This document shows, one piece after another, positions 10,201-60,683 of a DNA stretch of 64,000 nucleotides. Position 1 is the stretch's first letter, and the number at the start of each line of letters is the position of its first letter. The position numbers and the translations under genes were made by a program. The notes beneath the pieces were generated by a model. It was not told the DNA's origin. It made no database searches and was given only the letters and a program-made list of their open reading frames with translations. This DNA is from Streptomyces sp. HUAS ZL42 (GTDB taxonomy: Bacteria > Actinomycetota > Actinomycetes > Streptomycetales > Streptomycetaceae): positions 9,087,001 to 9,151,000 of the forward strand of contig NZ_CP160403.1 of NCBI RefSeq assembly GCF_040782645.1. The letters are read 5' to 3'.

Positions 10201-13200
10201 TCTTCGACCGCGCCGCGCACCCGCTGCTGGGCATCCAGCTGCAGTCCGCGGACGAGACCCGCTGGACCTTCCGCAACGAGTGGTCGACGGCCACCGCCGA
10301 CTGGCTGCCCGGCCACGCCGTGTTCGGCCGGACCGTCGTGTCCGGAACCACCCTGCTGGAGCTGTGCCGAGCCGCCCTCGCGGCGGCCCGCCCGGACACA
10401 CCCGCCGACGTCTGCGGTCTGCTCCTCCTGACGCCGCTCACACTGCCCGCCTCGGGCACGGTCGAGGTGTCCGTCGAGGTGACCACAGACGGTCCCGCGG
10501 CCGAGGTCACGGTGCACGGCCGCCCGCGCGGCCTGGAGGGCGCGGGCTGGGCACTGCACGCCACCGCGTCGGCTGCCGAGCCCGCGCCTGCCACGACCGG
10601 ACCGGCCCCCACGTGGCCGGAGGCCGCCGAACAGGCATGGAGTCCCGAGACGTACGAGCGGCTCAGCGGCCTCGGTCTCGGCTACGGTCCGGCCTTCCAG
10701 GGCGTACGGGAAGCGGTGCTGACCGGCGACGGCGGGTTGCTGGCCCGGCTGTCGCTGCCGCCCGTGGCCCGCGACCTGACCGATCCGTACCCCGTCCATC
10801 CGGCCCTCCTCGACGCCGCGCTGCACGTGACCGCCGCGTTCGACGCGTCCGACGGGCGGGTACTGCTGCCGGTCGCGGTGGGCCGGTGCACGCTGCCGCC
10901 CGGTGGTGCGACGGACCTCGTCGCGGCCGTGCGGCGCACGGGTGGCTCGGCGTCGGACGTCACGCTGGACGTGACGCTGTGGGACGCCGACGGCTTCCCG
11001 GCCGGCCGCCTGGAGGACGTACGGCTGCGGGCGGTGAGCCCCGCCGATCTGAGCAGCGGCTCGGCGAACGCACGGCACCTGTACGAGGTGGCGTGGACGG
11101 CCGTGGCCGAGCAGCCCGCGCGGACGCCCTCCGGCGGGTGGACCGTGCTCGGTGACCACTCGGACCCGCAGGTCGCGGCCACCGTGAGCGAACCGGGCGC
11201 CGACGTGGTCGTACGGTTCTGGCCGCGCCCCGCGCCGGACGCGGCCGAGGTGCGGCAGCTGGCCGCCACCGCCCTGGACGAACTGCAGGCGCTGATCGCG
11301 CTCCCGCCCGGCGAGGCCCCCGGCCGGACCGTCTGGGTGACACGGGGCGCGGTCGCGGCCGATGACGGCGACCGCGTGCCGGGGCTCGCCCAGTCGGTGC
11401 TGTGGGGTCTGGCCCGCAGCGCCCGCACCGAACACCCGGCCCTCGGGCTGACCCTTCTGGACCTTGACGACACCAACGCTCCCACGGATGCCCTGCGGGC
11501 GGCCCTGTCGGTTGAGAACGAGCCCGAACTCGCCTTCCGCGCGGGGGCGTTGCTCGCTCCCCGACTGGTGCGCGCCCGGGGCGCGGTGCAGGAGGGTGCG
11601 GTGCCCACCGAGGGCACCGTCCTGATCACCGGCGGCCTTGGCGCCGTCGGCCTTCACATCGCCCGGCTCCTCGCCGAACGCGGAGTCGCCCGGCTGCTCC
11701 TGACGTCACGTCAGGGACCGGCCGATCCACGCACTCCGGAAGTGATCGCGGAACTGTCCGCACTGGGCGCCGAGGTCCAGGTGGCCGCCTGTGACGTGGC
11801 GGACGCCGCCGCGCTGGCCGGCCTGCTCACCGGTGTGCGGCTGAGCGGAGTCGTGCACTGCGCCGGGATCCTGGACGACGGAGTGGTCGCCGAGCTGACG
11901 CCCGAACGTCTCGCGCGCGTGCTGCGCCCCAAGGTCGACGGGGCCCTCCACCTGCACCGCCTCACCGCCGACCAGCCGCTCGATGTGTTCCTGCTGGTCT
12001 CCTCGGCCGCCGGTGTCGTCGGCAACGCGGGACAGGGCAACTACGCGGCGGCCAACGTCTTCCTCGACCAACTGGCCCACCACCGGCGCGCCTCGGGCCT
12101 GCCGGGTGTGGCCGTCTCCTTCGGTGCGTGGGCCGGCGAGGGACTGGCCGCCGAGCACGCCGACCTGCAGCGGATGGCCCGCCTCGGGCATCGCGCCCTC
12201 AGCCCCGACCAGGGCCGCGACCTCGTCGAACTCGCCCTGCGGCGCGGCACACCGCACCAGGTCGCCTGGTCCCTGGACCTGGCCCGCCTGCGGGAGACCA
12301 CGACGGGGGCCCTGTGGCGTTCGCTGCTCCCCGCGCCCCGCGGCGGCGCACAGAACGCCGGCCTTGCGGACCGTCTTGCGCGCCTCCCCGAGGCCGAACG
12401 AGCCGAACGTGTCCTCGCCCTGATCCGCGAGGAGGCCTCCCGCGCCCTGGGCCTGCGCTCGGCGGAGTCCGTCCGCCCCGACCAGCCGCTGCGCGAGCTC
12501 GGCATGGACTCCGTGACGGCGGTCGAACTGCGCAACCGCATCGGCGCGCGCATCGGCGCCAAGCTCCCCGCCACCCTCCTGTTCGACCACCCCACCCCGG
12601 CCCGCCTCACCGAGTACCTGCTGACCACGACGCCGGCCACAGGCGGCCGCACGACGCGCCGCGCGGACACGCGCCCCGCCCGCACCCAGGCACCGTCCGA
12701 CGAGCCGATCGCCGTCGTGGCCATGGCCTGCCGACTGCCCGGCGGCGTGGGCGATCCCGAGGACCTGTGGCACCTCCTCGCCGAGGGCCAGGACGCCGTG
12801 GGCCCCTTCCCGGCCCGCCGCTGGGACGTGGAGTCGCTGTACGACCCCGACCCGGACGCCCTGGGCAAGTCGTACGCCCGTGAAGGCGGGTTCCTCGATG
12901 ACATCGAGTCCTTCGACGCGGGCTTCTTCGGGATCACTCCGAAGGAGGCGGCCGCGATGGACCCCCAGCAGCGCCTGCTGCTGGAGACCGCGTGGGAGGC
13001 GCTGGAGCGCGCCGGAATCGTGCCCGCCCGCCTCGCGGGCAGCACCACCGGCGTCTACGTCGGCATGTTCGGCAGCGACTACCTGGCGGGCTCCCGGCTC
13101 GACCAGCTCGACGGGTACGTCGGTACGGGCTCCGCGCTCAGCGTCGCCTCCGGCCGGCTCGCATACGCGCTCGGACTGCACGGCCCGGCGCTGACCGTCG

Positions 13201-16200
13201 ACACCGCGTGCTCGTCGTCCCTGGTGGCGACGCATCTCGCGGCTCAGGCGCTGCGCTCGGGCGAGTGCGACCTGGCGCTCGCAGGCGGTGTGACGCTGAT
13301 GGTGACCCCGCAGACCTTCGTCGAGTTCAGCCGCCTGCGCGGCCTGTCCGCGACGGGCCGCTGCCGTTCCTTCTCCGACGACGCCGACGGCGCCGTCTGG
13401 GCCGAGGGCGCCGGCATGCTCGTACTGAAGCGACTGAGCGACGCACGACGTGACGGGGACGAGGTACTGGCGGTGCTGCGCGGCACGGCCGTCAACCAGG
13501 ACGGGCGCAGCCAGGGCCTGTCCGCGCCGAACGGCCCCGCCCAGGAGCAGGTGATCCGCCGGGCGCTGGAACTGTCCGGCCTCGCACCCGCCGACATCGA
13601 CTACATCGAGGCCCACGGCACGGGCACCACCCTCGGAGACCCGATCGAGGCCAACGCGCTCGCGCAGGTCTTCGGCGACTCGCGACCCAAAGACCGGCCC
13701 CTCCACCTGGGGTCGCTCAAGTCCAACGTCGGGCACACGCAGGCCGCTTCGGGCGTCGCCGGGCTGATCAAGGTGATCCAGTCGCTGCGCCACCAGACCC
13801 TCCCGCGCACCCTGCACGCCGGCACGCCCAGCCGGCATGTCGACTGGGAGGACAGCGGGCTGCGGCTGCTGCAGCAGGACGTGGCCTGGCCGTCGGCGGG
13901 GGAGCGGGTCAGGCGGGCCGGCGTCAGCGCCTTCGGGATCAGCGGGACGAACGCGCATGTGATCGTCGAGGAGGCCCCGCCGGCAGAGGCGGAGCCGCGA
14001 GCCGAACGGGCCACGGGCAAGCGGCTGTTCGTACTGTCCGCGCGCAGCGAGCCCGCCCTGCGCGGCCAGGCCGCGCGGCTCGCCCGGCACGTCGGCGACG
14101 AGGCCACGCTGCCGGACGTCGCCCACACTCTCGCCCTGCACCGCAGCCACTTCGAGCGGCGCGCCGCGCTCGTGGCGGGCGACCCGGACGAACTGCGTGC
14201 TCAGTTGGACGGGTTGGCGGCAGGCCGTAGGCCCCTCGCACCGCCACGTGAGGAGCAGGCCGGCAAGGTCGCGTTCGTCTTCGCCGGGCACGGCGGCCAA
14301 TGGCCCGGTATGGGCGTCGAGTTGATGAGCGACTCCGACGCCTTCCGCGAGGAGCTGACCCGGATCGACGAGGCAGTGCAGCGGCACGTCGGCTGGTCCG
14401 TGCTCAACGTGCTGCGGGCACCGGAGGAGTTCTCGCCGCTCGACCGCACCGAATACCTGCAGCCGGTGCTGTTCGCCGTCAACGCGGCCCTGGCCGCCGC
14501 CTGGCGGGCCTTCGGCGTCGCCCCCGACGCCGTGGCCGGACACAGCCTGGGCGAGATCGCCGCCGCGTACTGCGCGGGGGCCCTCACTCTCGACGAGGCG
14601 GTCGCCGTGGTGACCGCGCGTGCGCACTCGGTCGTCCCGCTCGTCGGACGGGGCGGCATGCTGGCCGTCGAGCTGCCGCACGCCGAGGCCGGGGAACTGC
14701 TCGCGCCCTACGCGGACCGGCTGTTCGTCGGCGCGGTCAACAGCGCCGCCTCCACGGCCCTGTCCGGCGACGCCGTCGCGCTCGCCGAACTCCGCCGCCA
14801 CCTGGAGGTACAGGGCATCACCGCCCGCCCCCTCTCGACGCCGTTCGCCTCGCACACCCCGTTGATGGAACCCCTGCGCGCCGAGCTCCTCGGCCGCTTC
14901 TCCGGGATCCGGGGCACGCGCACGGCGACCCCGCTGTACTCGGCGGTGACGGCCGAACCCGTCGCGGGCGACCGCCTGGACGCCGAGTACTGGTTCGCCA
15001 ACCTCCGTCAGCCCGTCCGCTTCGCAGACACCGTCCGGCGCATGCTGGACGACGGCTACCGCTACTTCGTCGAACTCAGCCCGCACCCCTCGCTCGTCCC
15101 GTCGATAGAGGCGGTGGCCGCCGAGGCCGGGATCGACGCCGTCGGCATCGGTTCACTGCGCCGAGGCCAGGACACGCACGACGTACTCCTCCGCAGGCTG
15201 GGCGAGTTGTACGAGGCCGGGCACACCCCGAACTGGCAGGCCTTGTTCCCGGCCGGGCGCCGAGTCGACCTGCCGACGTACGCCTTCGCCCGCGAACGCC
15301 ACTGGCTGGCCCCGGCTCCCGACACGGGGACCGTCGGCGGCTCACCGCTCCTCGGCACTCACATCGAGGCCAGTGACGAACCGGACCGGCACGTCTTCGA
15401 GACCCGGCTCGACCTGCGCGACAGCCGCTTCACCTACCTCACCGACCACCGGGTCACCGGGGAGGTCTGGCTGCCCGGCGCCGCCTTCCTCGACATGGCC
15501 CTGGGTGCCGCGTCGGCGGTGCAGGAAGGGGACGAAGTCCGGCTCGTCGATGTCAGGTTCGTCCAGCCGCTGCGGCTGGACGCGGATCGGCCGGTGCGCC
15601 TGCAGCTGGTGCTGCGGCCCGTCCAGGGCGGCTTCCGGGAGTTCACCATCGCCTCCGCCGCCGTCGGCTCCCGATGGGAGCGGCACGTCACCGGGCGGAT
15701 CGACATGACGGGCGGGGCAGCCCCTGTCGAGGCCGGGCTCGGCGCGCTGCGGGCGACGTGCACCGAAGCGGTCGACGTCCCGGCCGTCTACGCCGGACTC
15801 GCGGCCCTCGGTATCGAGTACGGCCCCGCCTTCCGCGGCCTGGAGACGGGCCACCGCACCGACGCCGCCGCGTTCGCCCGCCTCACCGGACGGCCCGCCG
15901 CCGGTCACCTGCTGCACCCCGCCCTCCTCGACGCCTCCTTCCACGCGGCCGCACTGCCGGGCAACGCACCGGAGGGACGCGCGTTCGTACCGGCGGGCTT
16001 CGGGCGGCTTCACTTCACCGGGCGGCGTACGACCCCCGTATGGGTGAGCTGCGAGCTGAGGTCCCCGCACGGCGACACCGCCACCCTCGACCTGCGGCTC
16101 TGGGACCAGGACGAGCAACTCGTGCTGGAGGCGAAGGACTTCACACTTGCCGCGCTCTCGCCGCTGGACGGCGCCCTCTTCGAGACCCGCTGGCAGCCGC

Positions 16201-19200
16201 GCCCGGCCGCCCAGGAGCCCCCTGCCACGGGCAGCTGGCTGATCCTGGCGGACGAGACGGGCGTGGCCGCCGAGCTAGGCGAGCGGCTGGGCGCGTCGGT
16301 GCCGCACGTGATCGCCCGCAGGGGTGAGGCGTTCCGCGTCGAAGGCCCAGGACGATACGTCCTCGACCCGGCCGATCCGGAGCAGTTGACCCGGCTGCTG
16401 GACGAGGCCTTCCCGGGCGGGCTGCCCGAGCGGGTTGTCCAGTTGACGGCCCTCGACGCCCCGCCCGTCACCGACGACCGTACGGCCGAGGAGGCGGCGC
16501 GGCTCGCCTGTCTGAGCACCCTGCACCTGGTCCGGACGCTCGCCGACCGCCCGCGGGGCCGGGCCCCCCGGCTCTTCGTCGTCGTCCGCGGCAGCCAGGC
16601 CGCCGGCGACAGCACCCAGGTGACGCACCCTCAGCAGGCGCTCGCCTGGGGCTTCGGGCTAGCGGTGGCGCAGGAGTACCCGGAGCTGGGCACCACCCTG
16701 ATCGACCTGCCTGCCGAGGGTGGCGCAGACGCCCTGTGGACACAGTTGTGGCACGCGGACGACGAACGGCTCGTCGCGCTGCGGGAGTCGGGCCGTCTGG
16801 TGCCGCGCCTTGCCCGCACCCGCCCGGACGACGCGGGCCACATGGCGATCACCCCGGACGGCGTGTACCTGATCACCGGCGGTCTGGGCGGCCTCGGCCG
16901 GGTCGTGGCCGACCGGCTGGTGCGCCTCGGTGCGCGCAGGCTCGCCCTGATGAGCCGGAGTGCGCCCGGCCCGGAGGCCGCGAACTGGATCGCGGGCCTC
17001 GAAGCGCGCGGCGTGCACGTGCTGCTCGCCCGCGCCGACGTCGCCGACCGTGCCGGTCTGACGGCCGCCCTCGACGGGGTACGGCGCGAAGCCGGGCCGA
17101 TCGCCGGCGTCGTCCACGCGGCGGGCGTGCTCGACGACGCGACAGTGGCGAACCTGACCGACGAACGCGTCCTGCGCGTCCTCGCCCCCAAGGTCCTCGG
17201 CACCGCCCTGCTCACCGAACTCACCCCGGAAGCGGGGACCTTGGTGCTGTTCGCCTCGGCCGCCGGCCTGCTCGGCTCCGCAGGACAGAGCCCGTACTCC
17301 GCGGCCAACGCCTTCCTCGACGCCTGGGCGCACCACCTCTCCCGCACAGGGCGGCGGGCGCTCAGCCTGGACTGGGGCGCCTGGGCCGGCGTCGGCATGG
17401 TGGCGGAGTCCGGGACGCGCCGTGCGGAAACCAGCCGCTCGGGTCTGATCGCCTTCTCCCCGCGGGAGGGCGGTGAGCTGTTCGAGCGGGTGCTCGCCAC
17501 GTCCCGACGCCAGCTCGCGCCGCTCGCCCTGGACCGGGACATGCTGTCGCTCGCTCCGGACGTGGCGCGCACCCGCCCGATCCTGGGCGACCTCGTCACG
17601 GTCCCGACCGGCACGGCGGACTCCGACGGCCTGGTGCGGAAGGTGTTCGCCGCGACGACCGAACAGGACCGCACCGCATGGCTCGAGGCGTACGTCAGGG
17701 CCCGCGTCGGCGAGGTCTCCGGAGGCGTCGTCGACGTCTCCGCGGCCACGGCCCTGAAGGAACTCGGCCTGGACTCCCTGATGCTGGTACGGCTGCGCAA
17801 CGCCTTCGCCCGCGAACTCGGCGTGGAACTCCCCACCGCCGAGGTGTTCTCCGCGTCCGACATCCGCGGCCTCGCCCGCGCCCTCGGCGAGGCCCTGCCC
17901 GAGAGCGCCGCCCAGGAGCAGGTCACCGACCCGGTACAGGAGGTACCGGAGACCGAGCTGCTGCCCGCTACCCGCGACGTCGTACGACTGCTGCGCAGCG
18001 CCCGGCCGGGCATGCCCGACGCGGCCCACGGCGTCGGCCTCGCCGTACGGCTCACCACGCCGACCACCCGCGAAACGCTCACGGACATCGTCACCCGTCT
18101 CGCGGCACGGCATGCCGCCCTGCGCACGGCAGTTGTCACCGGCAGCGAAGGCGGTCGGCAGCTGCGCGTGGACCGGTCGTTGCCGGAGCCGGTGCTGCGG
18201 TGGACGCAGACGGCCGAACCCGAGGCCCCTCGCGCGCTGCGGGAGCTCCTGGAGCCGCCGTTCGACCTGGGGACGCCGCCCCTGTGGCGGTTCGAGTTGC
18301 TGGACGGCGGCGCGAGCGGCCAGCTTTTGGTGTTCGGTGCCCACCACGCGGTCAGCGACCTCCAGTCGCTGCTGCTGGTGGCGCGTGAGATCGACGCAGA
18401 ACTGTCCGGCACGCCGCTCGGCTCCGACGTCACCAACCGGGACGTCCATCTCCTCGTCGAGGCCCAGCAGACGGGCGAGGGCTTCGGCGCGGCCGAATGG
18501 CGCGAGTCCTTCCGGGGCAGCGAGCGGCTCGACCTGACGCTCGCCCACCCGCGCCCGCAGCAGCGTTCGTACCGGGCAGGCAGCGTGACCGTGGCCCTCC
18601 CGGACGGGCTCATGGAACGCGTCTCTGCGGCCGCGAGCAGGCTCGCCGTCACGCCCGCCGCGTTCTGCCTCGGCACACTGACCGTCCTGCTGGCCAGGAA
18701 GCGGCGACGGGAGCGCTTCGTGCTCGCCGTGCCCGTGGACACCCGCATCCACGCCGACGCGTTCGACGCGGTGGGCTTCTACGGCGTCCCCGTTCCGTTC
18801 CCGGCCGAGGCCCGGGCGGGCGAATCCGTCGAGGAGGTGCTGCGCCGTACCGACGGCCGCCTGGAGCGGATCCTGAGGAAGGGCGCCATGTTCTCGGACG
18901 TCCTGGCCACGCTGGCCCGGCAGGGGCTGCACCGCGCGAACGCGCCGCTCGTCGAGGTGTACTTCAACTTCGTACGGCACGGCGGGCACCTGGCCAACCT
19001 GGAAGTACTGCCCGCCGGGACGGGCTACACCGACCTGGACCTGATGATCACCATGACCCCGGACGCGGGCCGCATCCGGTTCGACCACAACCTCGACATC
19101 CTGGACGAGGCGACGACGGCCGGGCTGGGGGAGGAGTTCCTGGCGCTGCTGGCGGAGGTGGCCGAAGACGGGTCAACGGTGGTGCGGCAGGAGGAGACGG

Positions 19201-20792
19201 CGGTGCGGCCGGGTTCCCTCGCCCTTGCCGCCACCTTCGCCCTCGGCAACCTCCCGCTGATGTGTGAGGCGGCCCTCGGTGAGGGCGCGCCGGACGGCGG
19301 CCTGACCGTCGCCGAAGCCCCGTACCACCAGGTCCTCGCGAGCGTGCAGGACCCGTCCGGCGTGTTCGCCGACCCGGCCACGGCCGTCGGCGTGGTGCTG
19401 CTGCGGGCGGCGGACCTGGAACGGTTCGGCCCGGTGGACGACGCCCTGCTCGCCGAACTGCGCACCGCCTACCCGGCCGCGCTGCGGTCCCTGTCGGAGC
19501 GGACCCGCAAGCCGCTGATCGTAGGCTTCCTGCCCACCTCCGGCGGCGACGACCGCCTGCGGCGCTGGGATCGCGGGATCAGGGACGAGCTGGACGGCCT
19601 GCCCGGCATCGCCGTGCTCGGCCCCGACGAGTGGACCCGGCACCACACCGTCGAGGAACCCTTCGACGAGCGGACCGAGCGGCTGGCCCACCTCCCCTTC
19701 ACCCCGCCCTTCCAGGCGGCGGTCGCCCTGCGCCTCGCCGAGGCCGTACGGGCGGTACGGCGCCCCGCGCCCAAGGTGATCGCCGTCGACGGCGACGAGA
19801 CCCTGTGGGGCGGGGTGGCCGGCGAGATCGGCCCCGAGGCCGTCGACCTGGCCGGTGCGCGGGCGCTGCTGGCGCGCAGGTTGCTGCAGTGGCGGGAGGC
19901 GGGAGCCCTGCTCGCGCTTGTCAGCAACAACGACGAGGCGACCGTACGAGCCGTGCTGGACCGGCCCGACAGCCTGCTCAAGGCCGAGCACTTCAGTGTG
20001 CTCTCCGCCGAGTGGGGCCCGAAGCCCGCCCGCCTGGCGGAGGCGGCGCGCACGCTCAACCTGGGCGTCGACAGCTTCCTCTTCCTGGACGACAACCCGG
20101 CCGAGATCGGCAAGATGAGGTCGGCGCTTCCCCGGGTACTGTCGGTGACCTGCCCGGCCGCGACCGAACTCGAGGAGTTCCTGGGCCGGTTGTGGCCCCT
20201 GGTCCCGGCGGCCGCGACCGCCGAGGACACGCTGCGGGCGCGCTTCTACGAGCAGGAACGGGAGCGGGACGCGGCCCGCGCACGGGCAGGCTTCGAGGAG
20301 TTCCTCGACGGGCTGCGGCTGGAGGTCGACATCCGCGTCCTGTCCGGGGACGACCTCCAGCGGGCCGAGCAACTCGTCTGCCGCACCAACCAGTTCACCC
20401 TGCGCGCCCGGTCCGCCGACGGCGGCGATCTCCCCCGCTGGCGGGAGCGGGGCGAGGTGTGGACGGCCGCCGCCCGGGACCGGTTCGGCGACTACGGCCA
20501 GATCGGCCTGCTCGCGATCCGGGCGGACGGCGATCAACTCGAGGTCCTGGGCTGGCTGATGAGCTGCCGGGCGCTCGGCCGCGGTGTCGAGGAAGCACTG
20601 CTGCGATGGCTGGCCGACCGGGCCGATGAACTGGGCTGCACAAAGGTGCTGCTGACCGCGGAGCGCACCCCGCGCAACGTGCCCGCCCGTCGGCTGGTGG
20701 CCGCCCTCGGCGTTGGCCACCAGGACGACGAGCTCCTCGAGACCGTGACCACGCCGGACCGCCTGCGGGCGTTCCGGTCCTGGGAGCGATAG
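7245..20792 (+). CDS. Type I PKS: ACP-(KS-AT-DH-KR-ACP)x2-C-FkbH
   Basis: A 4,515-residue modular synthase. Approximate domains: ACP 16-92 (FGLGSRQL); KS1 110-535 (DTACSSS, EAHGTGT, SNIGHTQ); AT1 635-920 (GHSQGE, YASH: methylmalonyl type); DH1 985-1270 (GHAVFGRTVVSG, LLDAALH); KR1 1455-1640 (GGLGAVG, LDD, GQGNY); ACP 1720-1795 (LGMDS); KS2 1820-2245; AT2 2340-2620 (GHSLGE, FASH); DH2 2700-2975 (DHRVTGEVWLPG, LLDASFH); KR2 3205-3393 (LDD, GQSPY); ACP 3476-3552 (LGLDS); condensation domain 3570-3975 (HHAVSD); FkbH-like HAD/acyltransferase 3990-4510 (DGDETLWGG, LDDNPAE). There is no ER. Both KRs have the B-type LDD motif, so each module should give a trans-enoyl unit. ATG 7245 gives a complete ACP. 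A 47-base gap separates it from the ACP-reductase gene, so translation as one operon is likely. Confidence 0.93.
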   Translation: MPANESSKQSPEPSVTSAEGARAWLAAAVAEAAGLDPLTVDPHRPIAEFGLGSRQLVTLAAELSTETGRALEPSLVFNHPTVAAISEAIFEERPATPAPAAEPAARPGDDIAIISMACRFPGGADNPEALWRLLAAGEDAISEVPAGRWDTNGLYDPDPEATGTAYTLRGGFLSGIDRFDAPFFGISPREAAAMDPQQRLLLQTSWETLERAGIVPETLNGSSTGVYIGLYDSGYLSSASLGQLDGHVGTGSASSVASGRIAYTLGLQGPAVTVDTACSSSLVALHLAARALAAGECDLALAGGATLLVTPRGHVEFSRLRGLSPSGRCSPFSADADGVVWAEGCGLVLLKRLADARRDGDRVLAVVKGSAVNQDGRSQGLSAPNGLAQERVLRAALDAAGLRPDDIDHVEAHGTGTRLGDPVEGGALAAVFGPGRPAHRPLGVGSLKSNIGHTQAAAGIGGVIKTVLALGHERIPASLHAETPTEHIDWDGGGLRVQTGALAWPRGGDRVRRAGVSAFGISGTNAHVVLEEAPGEAVRPQAAEPSGRALFPLSARNATALQAQAGRLLETLQEQPQLCLPAAAATLTHHRTHFEHRAVVQAADRDELLTALHALAGGRPDTGRTVGPRPTLPEGKLAFVFPGQGAQWAGMARDLLDSDPVFADELDRCDGALRPFTDWSVTAVLRCAAGAPSLDRVDVVQPVLFAVMVALAAVWRARGVRPDAVIGHSQGEVAAACVAGALSLNDAAAVVALRSRALTRLSGTGTMAVVALPHTEVEARLGDRVFVAAVNSGRSTVVAGDVEPLEALLAELEREQVFVRRLDVDYASHTDRVEPIRTTILDELDGVTTHPASVAWYSTVTGQPVTEELEADYWYANLREPVRFAPAVEHMAADGYRYFVELGPHPSLLTALRTVDEDLVAVGSLRREEDGCACLDRAAAELHVHGRRIDWRRIVPDRPLADLPTYAWDAQRHWIEPEAGAGAPSLFDRAAHPLLGIQLQSADETRWTFRNEWSTATADWLPGHAVFGRTVVSGTTLLELCRAALAAARPDTPADVCGLLLLTPLTLPASGTVEVSVEVTTDGPAAEVTVHGRPRGLEGAGWALHATASAAEPAPATTGPAPTWPEAAEQAWSPETYERLSGLGLGYGPAFQGVREAVLTGDGGLLARLSLPPVARDLTDPYPVHPALLDAALHVTAAFDASDGRVLLPVAVGRCTLPPGGATDLVAAVRRTGGSASDVTLDVTLWDADGFPAGRLEDVRLRAVSPADLSSGSANARHLYEVAWTAVAEQPARTPSGGWTVLGDHSDPQVAATVSEPGADVVVRFWPRPAPDAAEVRQLAATALDELQALIALPPGEAPGRTVWVTRGAVAADDGDRVPGLAQSVLWGLARSARTEHPALGLTLLDLDDTNAPTDALRAALSVENEPELAFRAGALLAPRLVRARGAVQEGAVPTEGTVLITGGLGAVGLHIARLLAERGVARLLLTSRQGPADPRTPEVIAELSALGAEVQVAACDVADAAALAGLLTGVRLSGVVHCAGILDDGVVAELTPERLARVLRPKVDGALHLHRLTADQPLDVFLLVSSAAGVVGNAGQGNYAAANVFLDQLAHHRRASGLPGVAVSFGAWAGEGLAAEHADLQRMARLGHRALSPDQGRDLVELALRRGTPHQVAWSLDLARLRETTTGALWRSLLPAPRGGAQNAGLADRLARLPEAERAERVLALIREEASRALGLRSAESVRPDQPLRELGMDSVTAVELRNRIGARIGAKLPATLLFDHPTPARLTEYLLTTTPATGGRTTRRADTRPARTQAPSDEPIAVVAMACRLPGGVGDPEDLWHLLAEGQDAVGPFPARRWDVESLYDPDPDALGKSYAREGGFLDDIESFDAGFFGITPKEAAAMDPQQRLLLETAWEALERAGIVPARLAGSTTGVYVGMFGSDYLAGSRLDQLDGYVGTGSALSVASGRLAYALGLHGPALTVDTACSSSLVATHLAAQALRSGECDLALAGGVTLMVTPQTFVEFSRLRGLSATGRCRSFSDDADGAVWAEGAGMLVLKRLSDARRDGDEVLAVLRGTAVNQDGRSQGLSAPNGPAQEQVIRRALELSGLAPADIDYIEAHGTGTTLGDPIEANALAQVFGDSRPKDRPLHLGSLKSNVGHTQAASGVAGLIKVIQSLRHQTLPRTLHAGTPSRHVDWEDSGLRLLQQDVAWPSAGERVRRAGVSAFGISGTNAHVIVEEAPPAEAEPRAERATGKRLFVLSARSEPALRGQAARLARHVGDEATLPDVAHTLALHRSHFERRAALVAGDPDELRAQLDGLAAGRRPLAPPREEQAGKVAFVFAGHGGQWPGMGVELMSDSDAFREELTRIDEAVQRHVGWSVLNVLRAPEEFSPLDRTEYLQPVLFAVNAALAAAWRAFGVAPDAVAGHSLGEIAAAYCAGALTLDEAVAVVTARAHSVVPLVGRGGMLAVELPHAEAGELLAPYADRLFVGAVNSAASTALSGDAVALAELRRHLEVQGITARPLSTPFASHTPLMEPLRAELLGRFSGIRGTRTATPLYSAVTAEPVAGDRLDAEYWFANLRQPVRFADTVRRMLDDGYRYFVELSPHPSLVPSIEAVAAEAGIDAVGIGSLRRGQDTHDVLLRRLGELYEAGHTPNWQALFPAGRRVDLPTYAFARERHWLAPAPDTGTVGGSPLLGTHIEASDEPDRHVFETRLDLRDSRFTYLTDHRVTGEVWLPGAAFLDMALGAASAVQEGDEVRLVDVRFVQPLRLDADRPVRLQLVLRPVQGGFREFTIASAAVGSRWERHVTGRIDMTGGAAPVEAGLGALRATCTEAVDVPAVYAGLAALGIEYGPAFRGLETGHRTDAAAFARLTGRPAAGHLLHPALLDASFHAAALPGNAPEGRAFVPAGFGRLHFTGRRTTPVWVSCELRSPHGDTATLDLRLWDQDEQLVLEAKDFTLAALSPLDGALFETRWQPRPAAQEPPATGSWLILADETGVAAELGERLGASVPHVIARRGEAFRVEGPGRYVLDPADPEQLTRLLDEAFPGGLPERVVQLTALDAPPVTDDRTAEEAARLACLSTLHLVRTLADRPRGRAPRLFVVVRGSQAAGDSTQVTHPQQALAWGFGLAVAQEYPELGTTLIDLPAEGGADALWTQLWHADDERLVALRESGRLVPRLARTRPDDAGHMAITPDGVYLITGGLGGLGRVVADRLVRLGARRLALMSRSAPGPEAANWIAGLEARGVHVLLARADVADRAGLTAALDGVRREAGPIAGVVHAAGVLDDATVANLTDERVLRVLAPKVLGTALLTELTPEAGTLVLFASAAGLLGSAGQSPYSAANAFLDAWAHHLSRTGRRALSLDWGAWAGVGMVAESGTRRAETSRSGLIAFSPREGGELFERVLATSRRQLAPLALDRDMLSLAPDVARTRPILGDLVTVPTGTADSDGLVRKVFAATTEQDRTAWLEAYVRARVGEVSGGVVDVSAATALKELGLDSLMLVRLRNAFARELGVELPTAEVFSASDIRGLARALGEALPESAAQEQVTDPVQEVPETELLPATRDVVRLLRSARPGMPDAAHGVGLAVRLTTPTTRETLTDIVTRLAARHAALRTAVVTGSEGGRQLRVDRSLPEPVLRWTQTAEPEAPRALRELLEPPFDLGTPPLWRFELLDGGASGQLLVFGAHHAVSDLQSLLLVAREIDAELSGTPLGSDVTNRDVHLLVEAQQTGEGFGAAEWRESFRGSERLDLTLAHPRPQQRSYRAGSVTVALPDGLMERVSAAASRLAVTPAAFCLGTLTVLLARKRRRERFVLAVPVDTRIHADAFDAVGFYGVPVPFPAEARAGESVEEVLRRTDGRLERILRKGAMFSDVLATLARQGLHRANAPLVEVYFNFVRHGGHLANLEVLPAGTGYTDLDLMITMTPDAGRIRFDHNLDILDEATTAGLGEEFLALLAEVAEDGSTVVRQEETAVRPGSLALAATFALGNLPLMCEAALGEGAPDGGLTVAEAPYHQVLASVQDPSGVFADPATAVGVVLLRAADLERFGPVDDALLAELRTAYPAALRSLSERTRKPLIVGFLPTSGGDDRLRRWDRGIRDELDGLPGIAVLGPDEWTRHHTVEEPFDERTERLAHLPFTPPFQAAVALRLAEAVRAVRRPAPKVIAVDGDETLWGGVAGEIGPEAVDLAGARALLARRLLQWREAGALLALVSNNDEATVRAVLDRPDSLLKAEHFSVLSAEWGPKPARLAEAARTLNLGVDSFLFLDDNPAEIGKMRSALPRVLSVTCPAATELEEFLGRLWPLVPAAATAEDTLRARFYEQERERDAARARAGFEEFLDGLRLEVDIRVLSGDDLQRAEQLVCRTNQFTLRARSADGGDLPRWRERGEVWTAAARDRFGDYGQIGLLAIRADGDQLEVLGWLMSCRALGRGVEEALLRWLADRADELGCTKVLLTAERTPRNVPARRLVAALGVGHQDDELLETVTTPDRLRAFRSWER

Positions 20793-20839
20793 GGCGGCAG
20801 TGGCGAAGGAAAGGACAGTTGACAGGGTGAAGGGCTCTC

Positions 20840-23461
20840 ATGCGTGACATGAACGAGGACAGCGGACAGCGGGCGACCGCCGAGTCGATCGAGCGGGGCG
20901 GCGGTGGCCTCAGCGTGACGGACCTGCTGGCCAAGGTCATGACGGCCGGGACCGCTGAGGAGCCCACGGCCACCGCCCCGGCGGCAGGGGTCGGGGTGGA
21001 GTCCACGCGTACCGCCTCGGCGGCGGGGGTCGGGGTGGAGTCCACGCGTACCGCCTCGGCGGCGGGGGTCGGGGTGGAGTCCACGCGTACCGCCTCGGCG
21101 GCGGGGGTCGGGGTGGAGTCCACGCGTACCGCCTCGGCGGCGGGGGTCGGGGTGGAGTCCACGCGTACCGCCTCGGCGGCGGGGGTCGGGGTGGAGTCCA
21201 CGCGTACCGCCTCGGCGGCGGGGGTCGGGGTGGAGTCCACGGCCACCGCCCCGGCGGCCTGGAGCCCGGAGAGCCTGGCCGCCGCCATCGCGGAGACGGC
21301 GGGCCGCTTTCTGCCCGCCGGCCGGCTCTCGCCCGACGCCGACTTCTTCGACGCCGGAGGCTCCTCCGTGCACGCCGTGGAACTCGCGGCCGAGCTGGAG
21401 AGCGAGCTAGGCGTAATGCTCGACCTGGACGACGTGTTCGCGGACGCGCGCCCCGTCAGCCTGGCCCGGAAGTGGCTGTCGGCCAACGGGGCAGAGGCCG
21501 CCGCTCGGACCCCGTCGGCTCCGGCGATCTCACGGACGTCCGGCATCCTCCCCGTTCCGTCCCCGCGCACCCCACCCGCGGTGACCACCGTCCCTCTCCC
21601 CGACGGCACGATCGACCCGTACTCCACCGCCCGCCGCGAGGACCTCGACCAGATCCTCGCCGACCTCGCGCTGGCCGACCGCCTGCCCTTCACCCGCTCG
21701 CCCGAGCCGCTGCCGCCGCGCCGGATCCTGCTGACCGGCGCCACCGGCTTCCTCGGCAGCCACATGCTCCTCGACCTGCTGCGGCACAGCGACGCGCACG
21801 TCCACTGCCTGGTCCGCGCGGCCGACGAGGAGGCGGCCGCGGCCCGCCTCGGTGAGCAGCTGCGCAGCTACCGGCTGCCCTGGTCCTCGGAGGTCCGCCG
21901 CCGGGTGACCGTGCTGCCCGGCGACATACGGCAGCCGCGCCTCGGCCTCTCCGACGAGCTGTGGCACACCCTCGCCCACGAACTGGACAGCATCGTCGGC
22001 GTCGCCGCCGCCGTGGACTTCCTGCGCGGCTACCGGTCACTGCGGTCGAGCAACGTCCTGGGCGCGCTCACCCTGGCCGAGCTCGCCGCGACCGGCCGAC
22101 CCAAGCCGCTGCACCACATCTCCTCGATCGCCGTCTTCAACGAGGTCGGCATCACGTCCATGGGCGAGGACGACCCGCTCGCCCACGCCGACCGCCTCAT
22201 CGCGGGTTACGACCAGACCAAGTGGGCCGCCGAGGTCGCCCTGCGCCGCGCACGCGACCACGGCCTCGTCGTCACCGCCCTGCGCCCCGGCGGCATCAGC
22301 GGCCACAGCAGGACCGGCGCCTACAACCCCCAGGACCTCAGCAGCGGTCTCATCTCGGCCTTCGGCCGCTTCCGCACCGTCCCCGCCTTCCGCTACCTCA
22401 ACGCGGCGCCGGTGGACTGGGTGAGCAGGGTGGCCAGCGCGGTCGTCTGCGAGCCCGACGCCTGGGGGTACGACTACAACCTCACCGGCGTGCCCAACAC
22501 CCTCGACGACGTCGTACGGGACATGGCGTTCGGCGGCATGCACGTCCGCGTACAGGACTGGGAGGAGTGGCGCACCGGCGCCCTGGCCCGCCTCGAGGCC
22601 GAACCGATCCCCGAACTGGCCTTCCTCAGCCGGGTGTTGCAGAGCCCCACCGCCCTGAAGCTGTGCGAGGCGACACTCAAGGGACCGGCCGCCCTCGGGG
22701 AGCGCACCGACGCGCTCGCCGAGGCACTCGGACTGCCGCCCGCCGCCCGCTACGACGCCCGGGCGCAGCTGAGGACGTTCGAGAAGCTCGCCGACGACGG
22801 CCTCGCCAGGCTGCCGCACAAGGACGACCAGCCCTACCTGTGGTTCGCCGAGACGACCGAGGGCAGCGTGCACCCCATCGGCAACGCCACCGCCGGCGTG
22901 CCCTGCTCGATGGCGCTGACCCTGTCCATCGCGAGCATGTACCAGCTGGTGAAGGAGCGGCGGATGGACGTCACCGGCGAGGTGACCTGCCCGGCGATCC
23001 ACCCCCGGCCACTGACCGTCGAGCACGGCGACGTCTGGGTCCGTCCCGACGAGGGCATCCCGCAGCAGCACGGCCTCAGGCACCAACTCCTGCGCTACCG
23101 GCTGCGGTTGCGCGACGCCGACGGCGCGGGCTGGTGGCTGGAGGGCCACAAGTACGCCCGCGCCCGCCGCGACCTGTGGCGGCAGACCCGCGCCCTGACC
23201 GTCGAGATCGGCCGCGAGGGAGAACCCGCGAGCCTGGCCGGCGAGGTCGTCGTCCCGGCCGGCTCCTACGTCCGCGACCAGATCGACGGCATCAAGGTCG
23301 CCGCCCACCTGACCAGCCAGGAGAAGCGCGCCGCCAAGCTGACCTGGCTCGCCTGGTTCGGCCTGGAGATGGGCCGCGGCCTGCTCGGCCCGTTCGCCCG
23401 GGCCGCCGCGGACCTGCTCGACCTGCGCCGCACCCCGACCCTCACGGAGCACCACCGATGA
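20840..23461 (+). CDS. ACP-thioester reductase with C-terminal GMC-linker-like domain
   Basis: An 873-residue protein that probably receives the last intermediate and releases it reductively. After a low-complexity N-terminus with seven 13-residue repeats (about 50-140) comes a carrier domain (about 141-213, FFDAGGSSVHAVEL). The NADPH-dependent thioester reductase domain follows (about 293-600) with LTGATGFLGSH, HHISSIAVF and the Tyr/Lys pair in YDQTKWAAE. The last 200 residues (about 663-850) are not part of standard reductases; the blocks RPLTVEHGDVWV, GHKYARARRDLWRQT and GEVVVPAGSY resemble the segment linking GMC oxidoreductase and hydrolase modules in cholesterol-oxidase-like proteins. 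Its stop codon overlaps the next start (ATGA). Product could be an aldehyde or, after a second reduction, an alcohol. Confidence 0.88.
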   Translation: MRDMNEDSGQRATAESIERGGGGLSVTDLLAKVMTAGTAEEPTATAPAAGVGVESTRTASAAGVGVESTRTASAAGVGVESTRTASAAGVGVESTRTASAAGVGVESTRTASAAGVGVESTRTASAAGVGVESTATAPAAWSPESLAAAIAETAGRFLPAGRLSPDADFFDAGGSSVHAVELAAELESELGVMLDLDDVFADARPVSLARKWLSANGAEAAARTPSAPAISRTSGILPVPSPRTPPAVTTVPLPDGTIDPYSTARREDLDQILADLALADRLPFTRSPEPLPPRRILLTGATGFLGSHMLLDLLRHSDAHVHCLVRAADEEAAAARLGEQLRSYRLPWSSEVRRRVTVLPGDIRQPRLGLSDELWHTLAHELDSIVGVAAAVDFLRGYRSLRSSNVLGALTLAELAATGRPKPLHHISSIAVFNEVGITSMGEDDPLAHADRLIAGYDQTKWAAEVALRRARDHGLVVTALRPGGISGHSRTGAYNPQDLSSGLISAFGRFRTVPAFRYLNAAPVDWVSRVASAVVCEPDAWGYDYNLTGVPNTLDDVVRDMAFGGMHVRVQDWEEWRTGALARLEAEPIPELAFLSRVLQSPTALKLCEATLKGPAALGERTDALAEALGLPPAARYDARAQLRTFEKLADDGLARLPHKDDQPYLWFAETTEGSVHPIGNATAGVPCSMALTLSIASMYQLVKERRMDVTGEVTCPAIHPRPLTVEHGDVWVRPDEGIPQQHGLRHQLLRYRLRLRDADGAGWWLEGHKYARARRDLWRQTRALTVEIGREGEPASLAGEVVVPAGSYVRDQIDGIKVAAHLTSQEKRAAKLTWLAWFGLEMGRGLLGPFARAAADLLDLRRTPTLTEHHR
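20987..21259 (+). repeat. Seven in-frame 39-bp tandem repeats
   Basis: Seven copies of a 39-bp unit encode GVGVESTRTASAA; the last copy differs (GVGVESTATAPAA) and the bases just before the array encode a matching partial EEPTATAPAA. The first six copies are essentially identical at DNA level, including synonymous positions, which points to recent expansion by slippage or unequal recombination. Since 39 is divisible by 3, copy-number changes keep the frame and alter only the linker before the carrier domain. Confidence 0.97.
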
Positions 23462-24597
23462 TCTTCAGGACGACCTCCTCCCGGACCACCGGGCCGGCGC
23501 TCCGCAGAGTCAGGACCACCCCCGCCCTGCGCCCCCTCCACCACCGCCTCGACCCGGCCCGCGTCGAGGAGATCCCCTTCCACGCGGCCGACGGCGTCCG
23601 CCTCGGACTGACCCGCATCGACGCGGGCGACGCCGACCGGCCCGCCGTACTGCTCCTGCACGGGCACACCGCGTCAGCCGACATGTTCCTGCTCCCCGAG
23701 ACCCGCAACCTCGTCGACGCCCTCCTCGACGACGGCTACGAGCCCTGGCTCCTCGACTGGCGGGGCAGCTGCCGGCTGCCGTACAACGAGACCGCACAGC
23801 GCTACACCTACGACGACGTGGCGCTGTACGACATCCCCGCGGCCGTCTCCCACATCCGCGAGCGCATCGGCGAGCGGCCGCTGTTCGTGGTCGCCCACTG
23901 CATCGGCTCCCTCACCCTGTCGCTGAGCATGGCGGCGGGGCTGGTGCCGGGCCTCGCGGGCGTGGTGTCCCAGGGCGTGTTCCTGACGCCGAAGCTCGCG
24001 GGCCGCACCTCCCTGCGCATGTCGGTGGCCGGGGAGCTGCTGAAGACCCGGATCGACCACATCCCGGTCGACTTCCGCAAGGTGGGCCTGTGGTCGAAGT
24101 ACACGCCGCTGTTCGCGCTCGCCTCCCGCAGGGCGGACTGCCCCGACCCGACCTGCCAGATCCTGCACAACTCGGCCTGGGGCACGGGCGCGTCCCTCTT
24201 CGTCCACGAGAACCTGTCCGAGGCCACTCACGACCGGCTCGCCGAGCTGCTCGGCCCGGCGCCGCTGTGGATCCTGCCGCACCTGCGCCGCATCGAGCTG
24301 GCCCGCAGCGTGGTGCGCTGGCACGACACCGACCACCGCTACCGCGCCCTGCCGCCCAACGCGCTGGACGCCGCCGGCCGCATCGACACACCCGTCCTGC
24401 TGCTCGCGGGCAGCGAGAACGGGCTCTGGCTGGACTCACAGAAGCTCTGCCACGAGGTCCTCGCGCACCGGCAGCCCCAGCTGGACGTGACGTACACCGA
24501 GATCCCCGGCTACGGCCACCTCGACACCTTCCTCGGCCGGGGCGCCGCCCTCGACGTGTTCGGCCACATCCTCGATTTCCTCGGCGAGCGACGGTGA
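23458..24597 (+). CDS. Alpha/beta hydrolase with cysteine nucleophile, PKS-cluster member
   Basis: This 379-residue alpha/beta hydrolase starts inside the reductase stop codon (ATGA overlap), so the two are translationally coupled. The oxyanion region is LLLHGHTASADMF and the nucleophile elbow is VVAHCIGSL, where Cys replaces the usual Ser. The catalytic His is in YGHLDTF; the acid is likely in GSENGLW, where the common Asp is not seen. The segment EPWLLDWRGSCRLPYNE resembles the hydrolase halves of GMC oxidoreductase-hydrolase fusions. Cys-type elbows are known from PHA synthases, where they carry acyl groups, so acyl transfer is as likely as hydrolysis. Acting on the PKS product is inference from the overlap. 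Confidence 0.85.
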   Translation: MIFRTTSSRTTGPALRRVRTTPALRPLHHRLDPARVEEIPFHAADGVRLGLTRIDAGDADRPAVLLLHGHTASADMFLLPETRNLVDALLDDGYEPWLLDWRGSCRLPYNETAQRYTYDDVALYDIPAAVSHIRERIGERPLFVVAHCIGSLTLSLSMAAGLVPGLAGVVSQGVFLTPKLAGRTSLRMSVAGELLKTRIDHIPVDFRKVGLWSKYTPLFALASRRADCPDPTCQILHNSAWGTGASLFVHENLSEATHDRLAELLGPAPLWILPHLRRIELARSVVRWHDTDHRYRALPPNALDAAGRIDTPVLLLAGSENGLWLDSQKLCHEVLAHRQPQLDVTYTEIPGYGHLDTFLGRGAALDVFGHILDFLGERR

Positions 24598-24660: not shown

Positions 24661-25440
24661 ATGCCGCAGCTCGAAGTCGACGGCGCAGCACTGACGTACG
24701 ACGACGAGGGCCCCCGCGACGGCGGCGGCGTGCCCTTGGTGTTCGTCCACGGCTGGACGGCGAACCGGCACCGCTGGGACCACCAGGTGGCGCACTTCGC
24801 CGAGAAGCGGCGGGTGATCCGGCTCGACCTGCGCGGCCACGGCGAGAGCAGCGGGGCGGGCGTACGGACGATCGAGGAGCTGGCGAAGGACGTTCTGGCC
24901 CTCCTCGACCATCTGAAGATCGAGCGGTGCGTCCTCGTCGGCCACTCGATGGGCGGGATGATCTCGCAGACCATCGCCCTCACCCACCCCGAGCGGGTGG
25001 AGCGGATGGTGCTGGTGAACTCGATCGGCCGCATGACCTACAACCGGGGCCGCGGCCTGCTGATGGGGGTCTCCACGCTCGTTCCCTTCAAGCTGTTCGT
25101 CGCCGCCAACATCCAGCGCGCCTTCGCCCCGGGCTACCCGCGCGAGGAGATCAGGGAGTACGTCAAGGCCTCCGCGGACACCCCGCGCGAGGTCGTCATG
25201 ACGCTCTACGGCGCCATGCGGGCCTTCGACGTCCTGGACCGGGTCGGCGAGATCGGCGTGCCCACCCTGATGGTTCACGGCTACCACGACATCCAGCTCC
25301 CGGTGAAGCAGATGCTGCGCATGGCGAAGGCGTACCCGGACGCCACGGTCCGCATCATCGACGCCGGCCACGAACTGCCGGTGGAGAAGCCCGCGGAACT
25401 GACGGCGGCGATCGACGCGTTCGTGACCAGCGCGGCCTGA
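24661..25440 (+). CDS. Alpha/beta fold hydrolase
   Basis: This 259-residue cytosolic alpha/beta hydrolase has the complete classical set: HGWTANRHRWDHQ oxyanion strand, Ser nucleophile in LVGHSMGGM (about residue 98), Asp in HGYHDIQLP and His in DAGHELPVEK. It is of the esterase/haloperoxidase-like type. A CCAGGAGG ribosome-binding site precedes ATG 24661. A strong hairpin lies between it and the PKS operon, so it may be a separate or attenuated unit. Its location makes it a candidate thioesterase or product esterase of the cluster, but nothing in its sequence proves this. Confidence 0.82.
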   Translation: MPQLEVDGAALTYDDEGPRDGGGVPLVFVHGWTANRHRWDHQVAHFAEKRRVIRLDLRGHGESSGAGVRTIEELAKDVLALLDHLKIERCVLVGHSMGGMISQTIALTHPERVERMVLVNSIGRMTYNRGRGLLMGVSTLVPFKLFVAANIQRAFAPGYPREEIREYVKASADTPREVVMTLYGAMRAFDVLDRVGEIGVPTLMVHGYHDIQLPVKQMLRMAKAYPDATVRIIDAGHELPVEKPAELTAAIDAFVTSAA

Positions 25441-33938: not shown

Positions 33939-34289
33939 ATGAAGTACTACCTGCTCAGCGTGGTCACTCCGAGTGAAGGGCAGATGCCCTCTCCCGACGC
34001 GCTCGCCGAGATCAACCGCAACCTCGAGACCTTCCACCAGGAGCTGCGCGAGGCCGGAGCCTGGGTCTTCGCCGGGGGTCTGCACGGACCGGAGACGGCC
34101 ACCGTGCTGCGACCCCGGGACGGCGACGTACTGATCACCGACGGACCGTACGCCGAGGGCAAGGAGTATCTGGGCGGCATCTGTCTGATCAAGGCACCCG
34201 ATCTGGACGCGGCCCTGCACTGGGGCCGCCGGGCGACCTGGGCCACCACGCTTCCCATCGAGGTGCGCCCGTTCATGGGCGAGGCGTGA
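33939..34289 (+). CDS. YCII-related DGPF-domain protein, partner of ECF sigma factor
   Basis: This 116-residue protein is of the YCII/DGPF type: [15 protein letters not shown] start, [20 protein letters not shown] and the signature [14 protein letters not shown] (DGPF motif read as DGPY). Members are regularly encoded beside ECF42 sigma factors and are thought to take part in signalling, without a proven activity. AAGGAGG precedes ATG 33939. Its TGA overlaps the sigma start (TGATG), so the two are translationally coupled. Confidence 0.85.
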
Positions 34290-35479
34290 TGCCCCTCGAC
34301 ATCGAGGCCGTCTTCCGCGCGGAGTACGGCCGCGCCGTCGCCGTCCTGGTCCGCCGCCTCGGCGACATCGACCTCGCCGAGGAGGCGGTCCAGGACGCCT
34401 TCGCCACGGCCGTACGGCGCTGGCCGGAGACCGGCGTGCCACCGAGCCCGGCCGGCTGGATCATCACCACCGCGCGCAACCGGGCGATCGACCGGCTGCG
34501 CCGGGAGTCGGGCCGCGACGCCCGGCACGCCGAGGCCGCCCGGCTGTACGCGCCCGGCGCGCCGGTGGAGGAGGGCCCCGTGCACGACGACCGGCTCCGG
34601 CTGATCTTCACGTGCTGTCACCCCGCGCTCGCCACCCAGGCCCAGGTCGCCCTGACCCTGCGTCTCCTCGGCGGGCTCACCACCGCTCAGATCGCCCGCG
34701 CCTTCCTGGTGCCCGAGCCGACCATGGCACAACGGCTCGTGCGGGCGAAGTCGAAGATCCGCCATGCCCGCATCCCGTACCGCGTGCCCCGGGACGCCGA
34801 CCTGCCGGACCGGCTCGAGGGGGTCCTGGCCGTCATCTACCTGATCTTCAACCAGGGATACGAGGGGGAGGCGGGCCTGTGCGCGGAGGCCGTACGCCTC
34901 GGTCGCCTCCTGACGGAACTCATGCCGGACGAGCCCGAGGCCACCGGCCTGCTCGCGCTGATGCTCCTCGTCGAGTCGAGACGGCCCGCCCGCCGGAACG
35001 AGCGAGGCGAACTCGTTCCGCTGCCGGAGCAGGATCGCCGACGCTGGGAGCACGACCTGATGGCCGAGGGTCAGGCGCTCGTCCGCCGCTGCCTGCGCCG
35101 CAACCGGCCCGGGCCGTACCAGATCCAGGCGGCGATCCAGGCCGTGCACAGTGATGCGCCGGCGCCTGCGGTCACGGACTGGGGACAGATCCTGCAGTTG
35201 TACGACCACCTCATGACCATCGCCCCCAGTCCCGTCGTGGCCCTGAACCGGGCTGTTGCCGTGGCCGAGGTGGAGGGCCCGCGTCACGCGCTCGACCTCG
35301 TGGACACGCTGGACCTCGACACCTACCACGTCTTCCACGCCGTCCGCGCCGATCTTCTCCGCCGCCTCGGCCGTGACACGGAGGCCGTAAGGGCGTACGA
35401 GACGGCCATGGCGCTCACCGAGAGCCCGGCGGAGCACGCCTACCTCGAACGCCGACGGCTCGAGCTCGTCCGCGCGTGA
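34289..35479 (+). CDS. ECF42-type RNA polymerase sigma factor
   Basis: This 396-residue sigma factor has region 2 (about 8-75: [46 protein letters not shown]) and region 4 (about 105-160: [42 protein letters not shown]). A C-terminal extension of over 200 residues (about 170-396) contains [27 protein letters not shown] and [16 protein letters not shown]. That TPR-like extension and the adjacent DGPF gene define ECF42, which has no anti-sigma factor; the extension is needed for activity in studied members. The ATG at 34289 overlaps the upstream stop codon and is preferred to GTG 34286. Confidence 0.92.
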
Positions 35480-55629: not shown

Positions 55630-55805
55630 CGACGCTACACACCCGTGCGAGGCACCACCACTCGTTCGCATCCACTCACCACATCGAGGGAATCAATCGG
55701 TCACACGTTCGCCATCCGCCTCCTCCCCCGGCCCGGGCGGGACACCCGGCCGCTCCGCGGCCGAACAGACGCAGTGACGCTGCAACGCTCCGCGCCGCAG
55801 CCACG

Positions 55806-59556: not shown

Positions 59557-59605
59557 CGGTGACTCCTCCTGGTGGTGCGTGTGACGGTGGGTGGTTCGGC
59601 GCGGA

Positions 59606-60667: not shown

Positions 60668-60683
60668 CGGGTGCTCCACGCGG

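What the first reader, a model, noticed from the sequence alone, without database searches (positions are those of the whole stretch)
17950..23461. PKS ending in a condensation-FkbH pair followed by ACP-reductase: predicted O-acyl glyceryl product
The PKS ends with a condensation domain (HHAVSD) and an FkbH domain (DGDETLWGG), with no carrier domain after them. The next gene begins with a carrier domain fused to a thioester reductase. FkbH domains are known to make glyceryl-S-ACP from 1,3-bisphosphoglycerate. A condensation domain can form an ester with the hydroxyl of such a unit, and the reductase would then release an acyl glyceraldehyde or glycerol. With FAAL loading, this would be an assembly line for a polyketide-glycerol lipid. 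No tetronate or methoxymalonyl genes are present, which argues against the usual fates of the glyceryl unit.
Basis: partly seen in the sequence, partly recalled or inferred. Interest (0 to 1): 0.85.

Follow-up and report, generated by a model that had tools for sequence, protein, structure and literature searches.

The report
Glyceryl-ester releasing end of polyketide synthase
A Streptomyces assembly line appears to end by joining its fatty chain to a three-carbon glycerol-type unit from sugar metabolism and cutting it off as an aldehyde; the same ending recurs on quite different assembly lines, together with a barrel-like domain and a cysteine hydrolase whose jobs are unknown.

Summary
The PKS (7245-20792) ends ACP-C-[about 185 aa]-FkbH with no carrier after it; the next gene (20840-23461) is ACP-thioester reductase (TR). 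Of 295 Streptomyces genomes searched, 34 have this C-FkbH; 32 of these have X and 33 ABH1. None of the other 261 has X; ABH1 appears there only as two short fragments or distant relatives. In the loci read, the cassette sits on four kinds of front end: a portable chain-release unit.

Likely mechanism: FkbH makes glyceryl-S-ACP, C esterifies it with the polyketide, TR releases O-acyl-glyceraldehyde, X/ABH1 then act. Each half has precedent: vioprolide (C-FkbH-T glycerate ester) and malleicyprol (C-NEX-T-Red: ester, reductive release). Unlike malleicyprol, the final module keeps intact KR and DH motifs, so the chain should be an enoyl, not beta-keto, thioester. The product is unknown; a simple acylglycerol lipid is not shown. 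New variant of a known kind.

The parts
5360..7063 (+). fatty acyl-AMP ligase (FAAL), proposed to load a fatty acid on ACP1
   Evidence: Pfam AMP-binding and DIP2-like AMP domain; FAAL-type NCBIfam models, below their cut-offs; also directly upstream in G117 and G207, the two orthologous loci whose upstream side was fetched
7245..20792 (+). PKS, 4515 aa: ACP-KS-AT-DH-KR-ACP-KS-AT-DH-KR-ACP-C-NEX?-FkbH (start codon inferred, ATG MPANESS)
15345..17387 (+). DH2 and KR2 of the last module, motifs intact (HRVTGEVWLP / DASFH; GGLGGLG, K, S, Y, N)
17736..17915 (+). ACP3, donor carrier (LGLDSL at 17763)
18042..19199 (+). condensation domain, HHAVSDL, proposed ester-forming
   Evidence: 80 bits; matches to NRPS C domains of the PDB
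19215..19763 (+). region between C and FkbH, candidate NEX (N-terminal extension of FkbH-like proteins)
   Evidence: FkbH proteins of six other genomes align from this region on (query residue 420-423, 36-40% identity), most other FkbHs from about 538-595; against: phmmer with this region alone found nothing at E 1e-8 in the four of the six that I fetched
19764..20726 (+). FkbH domain (HAD glyceryltransferase/phosphatase)
   Evidence: TIGR01686 395 bits, cut-off 146.65; 402 bits in the genome search
20840..23461 (+). ACP-TR-X protein, 873 aa
20879..20938 (+). N-terminal motif (AESIERGG...LLAK) shared by relatives, possible docking element
   Evidence: family consensus; function inferred
20972..21258 (+). 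39-bp tandem repeat, 7.4 copies, in the linker before ACP4
21275..21469 (+). ACP4, proposed acceptor of the glyceryl unit
   Evidence: Pfam PP-binding; ACP with Ser also in six related cassettes
21725..22645 (+). thioester reductase domain
   Evidence: TIGR01746 above cut-off; closest solved sequence MxaA 4u7w
22646..23458 (+). domain X, no Pfam or NCBIfam family; model with eight antiparallel strands, a barrel by its structural matches
   Evidence: no family; pLDDT 81.5
23458..24597 (+). ABH1, alpha/beta hydrolase with Cys at the nucleophile elbow (AHC[IV]G)
   Evidence: Pfam Abhydrolase_1; Cys148 in 21 of 21 aligned
24661..25440 (+). ABH2, Ser-type alpha/beta hydrolase (PcaD/esterase-like); usual in this cluster type, not found in the six other cassettes
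   Evidence: 27 of 35 loci

Best explanation
This is a reductive glyceryl-ester release cassette on a FAAL-primed two-module PKS. A fatty acid is activated by FAAL and put on ACP1, then extended twice with KR and DH processing to a 2,4-dienoyl chain on ACP3. FkbH takes the three-carbon unit of 1,3-bisphosphoglycerate, dephosphorylates it and puts it on ACP4 of the next protein as glyceryl-S-ACP4. The C domain moves the dienoyl chain onto a hydroxyl of that unit (probably the 2-OH), giving O-acyl-glyceryl-S-ACP4. The reductase releases it as O-acyl-glyceraldehyde. X and ABH1 then act on the aldehyde or ester. Shown: domains, motifs, order, conservation, co-occurrence. Inferred from characterised relatives: glyceryl loading, ester, reductive release. 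Unknown: what X and ABH1 do, and the product.
For: Domains and motifs. Vioprolide and corramycin share FAAL-ACP-C-FkbH-T, with glycerate ester-linked to a fatty acid in vioprolide. Malleicyprol BurF: C makes the ester and the terminal Red releases an aldehyde, shown in vitro; its region between C and T is called an FkbH-type NEX domain. X lies 1.5-2.2 kb behind FkbH and ABH1 within 84 bases of X in the 11 loci that I measured. Of the 35 loci, the 29 not cut by a contig end or gap carry X and ABH1. Co-occurrence: 32 and 33 of 34 genomes with C-FkbH, against 0 of 261 for X and two short fragments in 261 for ABH1.
Against: No biochemistry. ACP4 is on a separate protein, unlike vioprolide and malleicyprol, so pairing is inferred from adjacency. 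C subtype (ester or amide) was not classified; SgcC5 is not among the 25 PDB matches. FkbH-like domains can carry other C3 units (lactyl in bryostatin, recalled). TR may reduce by two or four electrons. DH1 has S for P in its first motif, so the double bond of module 1 is less sure. Why a Cys hydrolase is needed is not explained.
Confidence: 0.62

Rival explanations
1. After release the O-acyl-glyceraldehyde is closed to a butenolide or gamma-lactone, so the product is a 5-hydroxymethyl lactone rather than an open lipid. X and/or ABH1 would be the cyclase. (A possible continuation of the best explanation, not its opposite.)
For: Malleicyprol precedent: the aldehyde closes to a butenolide. X and ABH1 accompany C-FkbH in 32 and 33 of 34 genomes. 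The X model has a barrel fold; barrel cyclases AbmU and PyrI4 are among the weak Foldseek rows.
Against: Malleicyprol closure uses a beta-keto chain; here KR2 and DH2 motifs are intact, and KR and DH motifs can be read in the last modules of G175, G280 and G014. Foldseek rows for X all have E above 0.001 and barrels are a common arrangement.
Confidence: 0.25
2. The reductase makes two reductions and the product is an O-acylglycerol lipid; ABH1 and ABH2 trim or remodel it.
For: Closest solved TR sequence is MxaA, studied for making primary alcohols (title in the reference list shown; paper not read).
Against: Sequence closeness does not fix two- or four-electron reduction. An acylglycerol could be made more simply from glycerol 3-phosphate (inference). 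X is not explained.
Confidence: 0.2
3. C does not make an ester: the chain moves from ACP3 to ACP4 and TR releases a plain dienal; FkbH is idle or serves another carrier.
For: TR domains can release ACP-bound chains without C-FkbH (general knowledge).
Against: C and FkbH motifs are kept, the genome has one FkbH match, and of the 34 genomes with C-FkbH only G001 (79% complete) lacks ABH1.
Confidence: 0.08
4. The FkbH supplies an unusual extender (methoxymalonyl-type) or a tetronate.
For: These are well-known fates of FkbH products in Streptomyces (general knowledge; listings).
Against: No KAS III and no acyl-CoA dehydrogenase match lies inside the window; FkbH is fused behind C; a reductase follows.
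Confidence: 0.03

Closest known systems
Vioprolide and corramycin first modules (FAAL-ACP-C-FkbH-T)
   Same: FAAL start, C next to FkbH in place of an A domain, glycerate joined to a fatty acyl chain by an ester in vioprolide (passages of PMC8949500 and PMC10099666; the primary vioprolide paper was not read)
   Different: There the unit starts a peptide and chain growth continues; here two PKS modules precede it and a reductase on a separate protein ends the chain, with X and ABH1
Malleicyprol BurF terminal module (C-NEX-T-Red)
   Same: Fatty acid plus two malonyl extensions, ester-forming C, FkbH-type region between C and T, terminal reductase giving an aldehyde (PMC12304814)
   Different: Acceptor there is trigonic acid loaded by BurJ/BurH and only the NEX part of FkbH remains; here FkbH is whole. 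The chain there is beta-keto, here by motifs enoyl. X and ABH1 were not mentioned in the parts I read.
Tetronate pathways (RK-682, tetromadurin type)
   Same: FkbH-made glyceryl-ACP joined to a polyketide chain (as told in PMC12304814, and abstracts listed)
   Different: Joining there is by a FabH-like enzyme to a beta-keto chain; here by C, followed by reduction
GMC oxidoreductase with X-like tail plus nearby ABH1-like hydrolase
   Same: Distant relatives of X (tail) and ABH1 (34-40% identity, Cys elbow) in 7 Streptomyces loci
   Different: The partner is an FAD oxidoreductase; adjacent to the hydrolase in 3 loci, within about 3 kb in 4; X match weak in the 3 adjacent ones. No KS, AT, C or FkbH hit was printed for these 20-kb loci

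Membership tests
FkbH (TIGR01686) | Full-length match above curated cut-off, with HAD DxDxT motif | tested here: met
   395 bits vs 146.65, positions 1-323 of 323; DGDETLW
FkbH (TIGR01686) | Loads glyceryl from 1,3-bisphosphoglycerate on a carrier protein | not testable with these tools
   needs an assay
Vioprolide-type C-FkbH-T ester module | Order C, FkbH, T | tested here: met
   C and FkbH in one protein, T at the start of the next gene; T is not in cis as it is described for vioprolide
Vioprolide-type C-FkbH-T ester module | C joins an acyl chain to a glyceryl hydroxyl | not testable with these tools
   HHxxxD present; bond type cannot be read
Malleicyprol-type reductive butenolide release | C, FkbH-derived region, T and terminal Red in this order | tested here: met
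   the FkbH part is whole here and T-Red are on a second protein
Malleicyprol-type reductive butenolide release | Beta-keto thioester as donor | tested here: not met
   KR2 and DH2 motifs intact in the window and orthologues; by motif, not by assay
Tetronate biosynthesis | FabH-like (KAS III) joining enzyme in the cluster | tested here: not met
   PF08541 has 5 places in the genome (4 above cut-off), none in the window
Methoxymalonyl-type extender pathway | Acyl-CoA dehydrogenase partner beside FkbH | tested here: not met
   PF02770 has 29 places in the genome, none in the window
PHA-synthase / acid-lipase-like alpha/beta hydrolases (ABH1) | Membership of the PHA synthase family, Cys nucleophile | tested here: inconclusive
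   Cys in 21 of 21; PHA_synth_I 20.6 bits, far below cut-off 622.65; gastric lipase E 2.4e-11; structure model failed
Spirotetronate beta-barrel cyclases (AbmU, PyrI4) | Same fold as X | tested here: inconclusive
   Foldseek E 0.066-0.14, probability 0.08-0.13; not among the rows shown

The most novel reading that the evidence does not exclude
X and ABH1 form a new kind of cyclase acting on O-(2-enoyl)glyceraldehyde: the ABH1 cysteine adds to the beta-carbon of the enoyl ester, the alpha-carbon closes on the tethered aldehyde, and the cysteine leaves (an enzymatic Morita-Baylis-Hillman or Rauhut-Currier-like reaction), giving alpha-alkylidene-beta-hydroxy-gamma-hydroxymethyl butyrolactones. 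This would explain why the last module makes an enoyl wherever it could be read, why an aldehyde is made, and why the hydrolase has a cysteine. Streptomyces would thus attach one lactone-forming ending to many polyketide chains.
Probability: 0.1. Interest if true: 0.9.

Novelty: new variant of a known kind. Interest (0 to 1): 0.62.

Why it matters
It defines a portable polyketide ending, found in about one in nine of the Streptomyces genomes searched and, by names, in other actinobacterial genera, that joins a glycolysis-derived C3 unit to a chain by an ester and cuts it off reductively. It points to a compound class that can be mined from genomes and gives two unassigned enzymes (a barrel domain and a Cys hydrolase) a concrete substrate hypothesis. 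It also offers a setting in which a whole FkbH, C and reductase work together, a plausible relative of the arrangement from which the malleicyprol module may have lost its FkbH.

Full report
What is there. The window lies at 9.087-9.151 Mb of a 9.87 Mb single-contig genome; its nearest named relatives are Streptomyces, so I take the genus to be Streptomyces. A compact run of plus-strand genes reads FAAL (5360-7063), PKS (7245-20792), ACP-TR-X (20840-23461), ABH1 (23458-24597) and ABH2 (24661-25440). The PKS reads ACP-KS-AT-DH-KR-ACP-KS-AT-DH-KR-ACP-C-[about 185 aa]-FkbH.

Conservation. A scan of named genomes with the C-FkbH stretch gave 35 Streptomyces loci at 67-81% identity in the best segment. 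Twenty-nine of the 35 carry X and ABH1 behind it; five of the other six end with their contig, and the sixth (L034) has an assembly gap shortly behind a shortened start of the reductase gene, with unrelated sequence after it. ABH2 is seen in 27 of the 35; L004 and L031 lack it although their DNA reaches further. Among 295 genomes of the genus (own included), 34 have C-FkbH at 54% identity or more (two candidates scored per genome); 32 of these have X and 33 have ABH1 at 67% or more. The exceptions are G001 (79% complete, neither found) and G063 (X not found). Outside the 34, X is not found at E 1e-10. ABH1 there gives seven distant relatives at 34-40% identity and two short fragments, in G239 (43 residues at 84%) and G285 (45 residues at 81%), which I did not count as ABH1 and did not look into. 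Fisher P values are below 1e-40 but relatedness makes them too small; the plain counts are the evidence. In the 11 loci that I measured, X starts 1.5-2.2 kb behind FkbH and ABH1 starts within 84 bases of X.

A portable ending. Eight genomes carry a second type of the cassette at 54-61% identity, two of them (G067, G282) beside the first type. I read six of these eight. In G175 the FAAL is fused to a two-module PKS. In G280, G180 and G014 longer modular PKSs precede C-FkbH. In G067 and G282 the last KS lies before C with no AT or KR hit between, and in both the HGTGT motif reads ANGT, as in non-elongating KSs (recalled). All six have an ACP with its serine, TR, X and ABH1 behind.

How it likely works. 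FkbH domains make a glyceryl unit on a carrier from 1,3-bisphosphoglycerate; in NRPS modules they stand in place of A domains (PMC8949500, passages). In vioprolide the order FAAL-ACP-C-FkbH-T joins glycerate to a fatty acid by an ester, and corramycin has the same order (PMC8949500 and PMC10099666, passages; the latter says the vioprolide FkbH was shown to activate 3-phosphoglycerate). In malleicyprol a C domain of BurF joins a PKS chain to an alpha-hydroxy acid by an ester and the Red domain releases an aldehyde, shown by in vitro reconstitution and mutation (PMC12304814: abstract, introduction, first part of results, passages, part of the references). The window combines these: whole FkbH, C, then ACP and TR. 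FkbH proteins of six other genomes align with the query from the region between C and FkbH onward, while most other FkbH hits start later; this fits a NEX region. Against it, phmmer with that region alone found nothing at E 1e-8 in the four of these six that I fetched, where FkbH lies within a PKS. Glyceryl loading, ester formation and reductive release are inferred; none was tested.

Why not simply malleicyprol chemistry. Malleicyprol closes its ring from a beta-keto chain. Here the last module has KR and DH with their motifs: DH2 keeps D...H in 35 of 35 rows, and the first DH motif begins with H in the 32 of 35 rows that the call printed; KR2 keeps GGLGGLG in 34 of 34, the serine in 33 of 34 (one gap), and Y and N in the 32 of 34 rows printed. 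KR and DH motifs can also be read in G175, G280 and G014; the KR of G180 is cut by an N gap, and the two KS-only types were not traced further upstream. So the chain offered to C should be a 2-enoyl, here probably 2,4-dienoyl, thioester. DH1 has S in place of P in its first motif (translation), so its activity is less sure.

Limits. No chemistry was done. C subtype, reduction level and regiochemistry cannot be read. The ABH1 model failed. The paper library has open-licence papers only, so 'not seen' means only that the listings named in Tried and rejected showed no such cassette.

Noticed in passing
window 58675-60679 (-): Geranyl diphosphate 2-C-methyltransferase (NF041943, above cut-off) beside a family 2 encapsulin cargo terpene cyclase (NF041167, above cut-off): looks like a 2-methylisoborneol-type pair (recalled).
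   Followed up: partly
window 54349-55671 (-): TnpB-family RNA-guided endonuclease (NF040570, 191.6 bits vs cut-off 100).
   Followed up: no
window 20972-21258: 39-bp tandem repeat, 7.4 copies at 97% match, coding a 13-aa repeat in the linker before ACP4; not seen in the first 75 residues of the seven other proteins printed.
   Followed up: partly
L080-L086: GMC oxidoreductase with an X-like C-terminal part near a Cys-type alpha/beta hydrolase, repeated in seven genomes of the genus; function not looked up.
   Followed up: partly
L050:13833-20000 and L058:2-4291: PKS ending whose last KS reads ANGT in place of HGTGT (probably non-elongating), directly before ACP-C-FkbH.
   Followed up: partly
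G239:C236:79452-79580 and G285:C1:689856-689981: Short stretches (43 and 45 residues) at 84 and 81% identity to ABH1 in genomes without C-FkbH of this type; perhaps remnants.
   Followed up: no
window 34286-35479 (+): ECF-type sigma factor with DUF6596 and a weak TPR match below cut-off.
   Followed up: no
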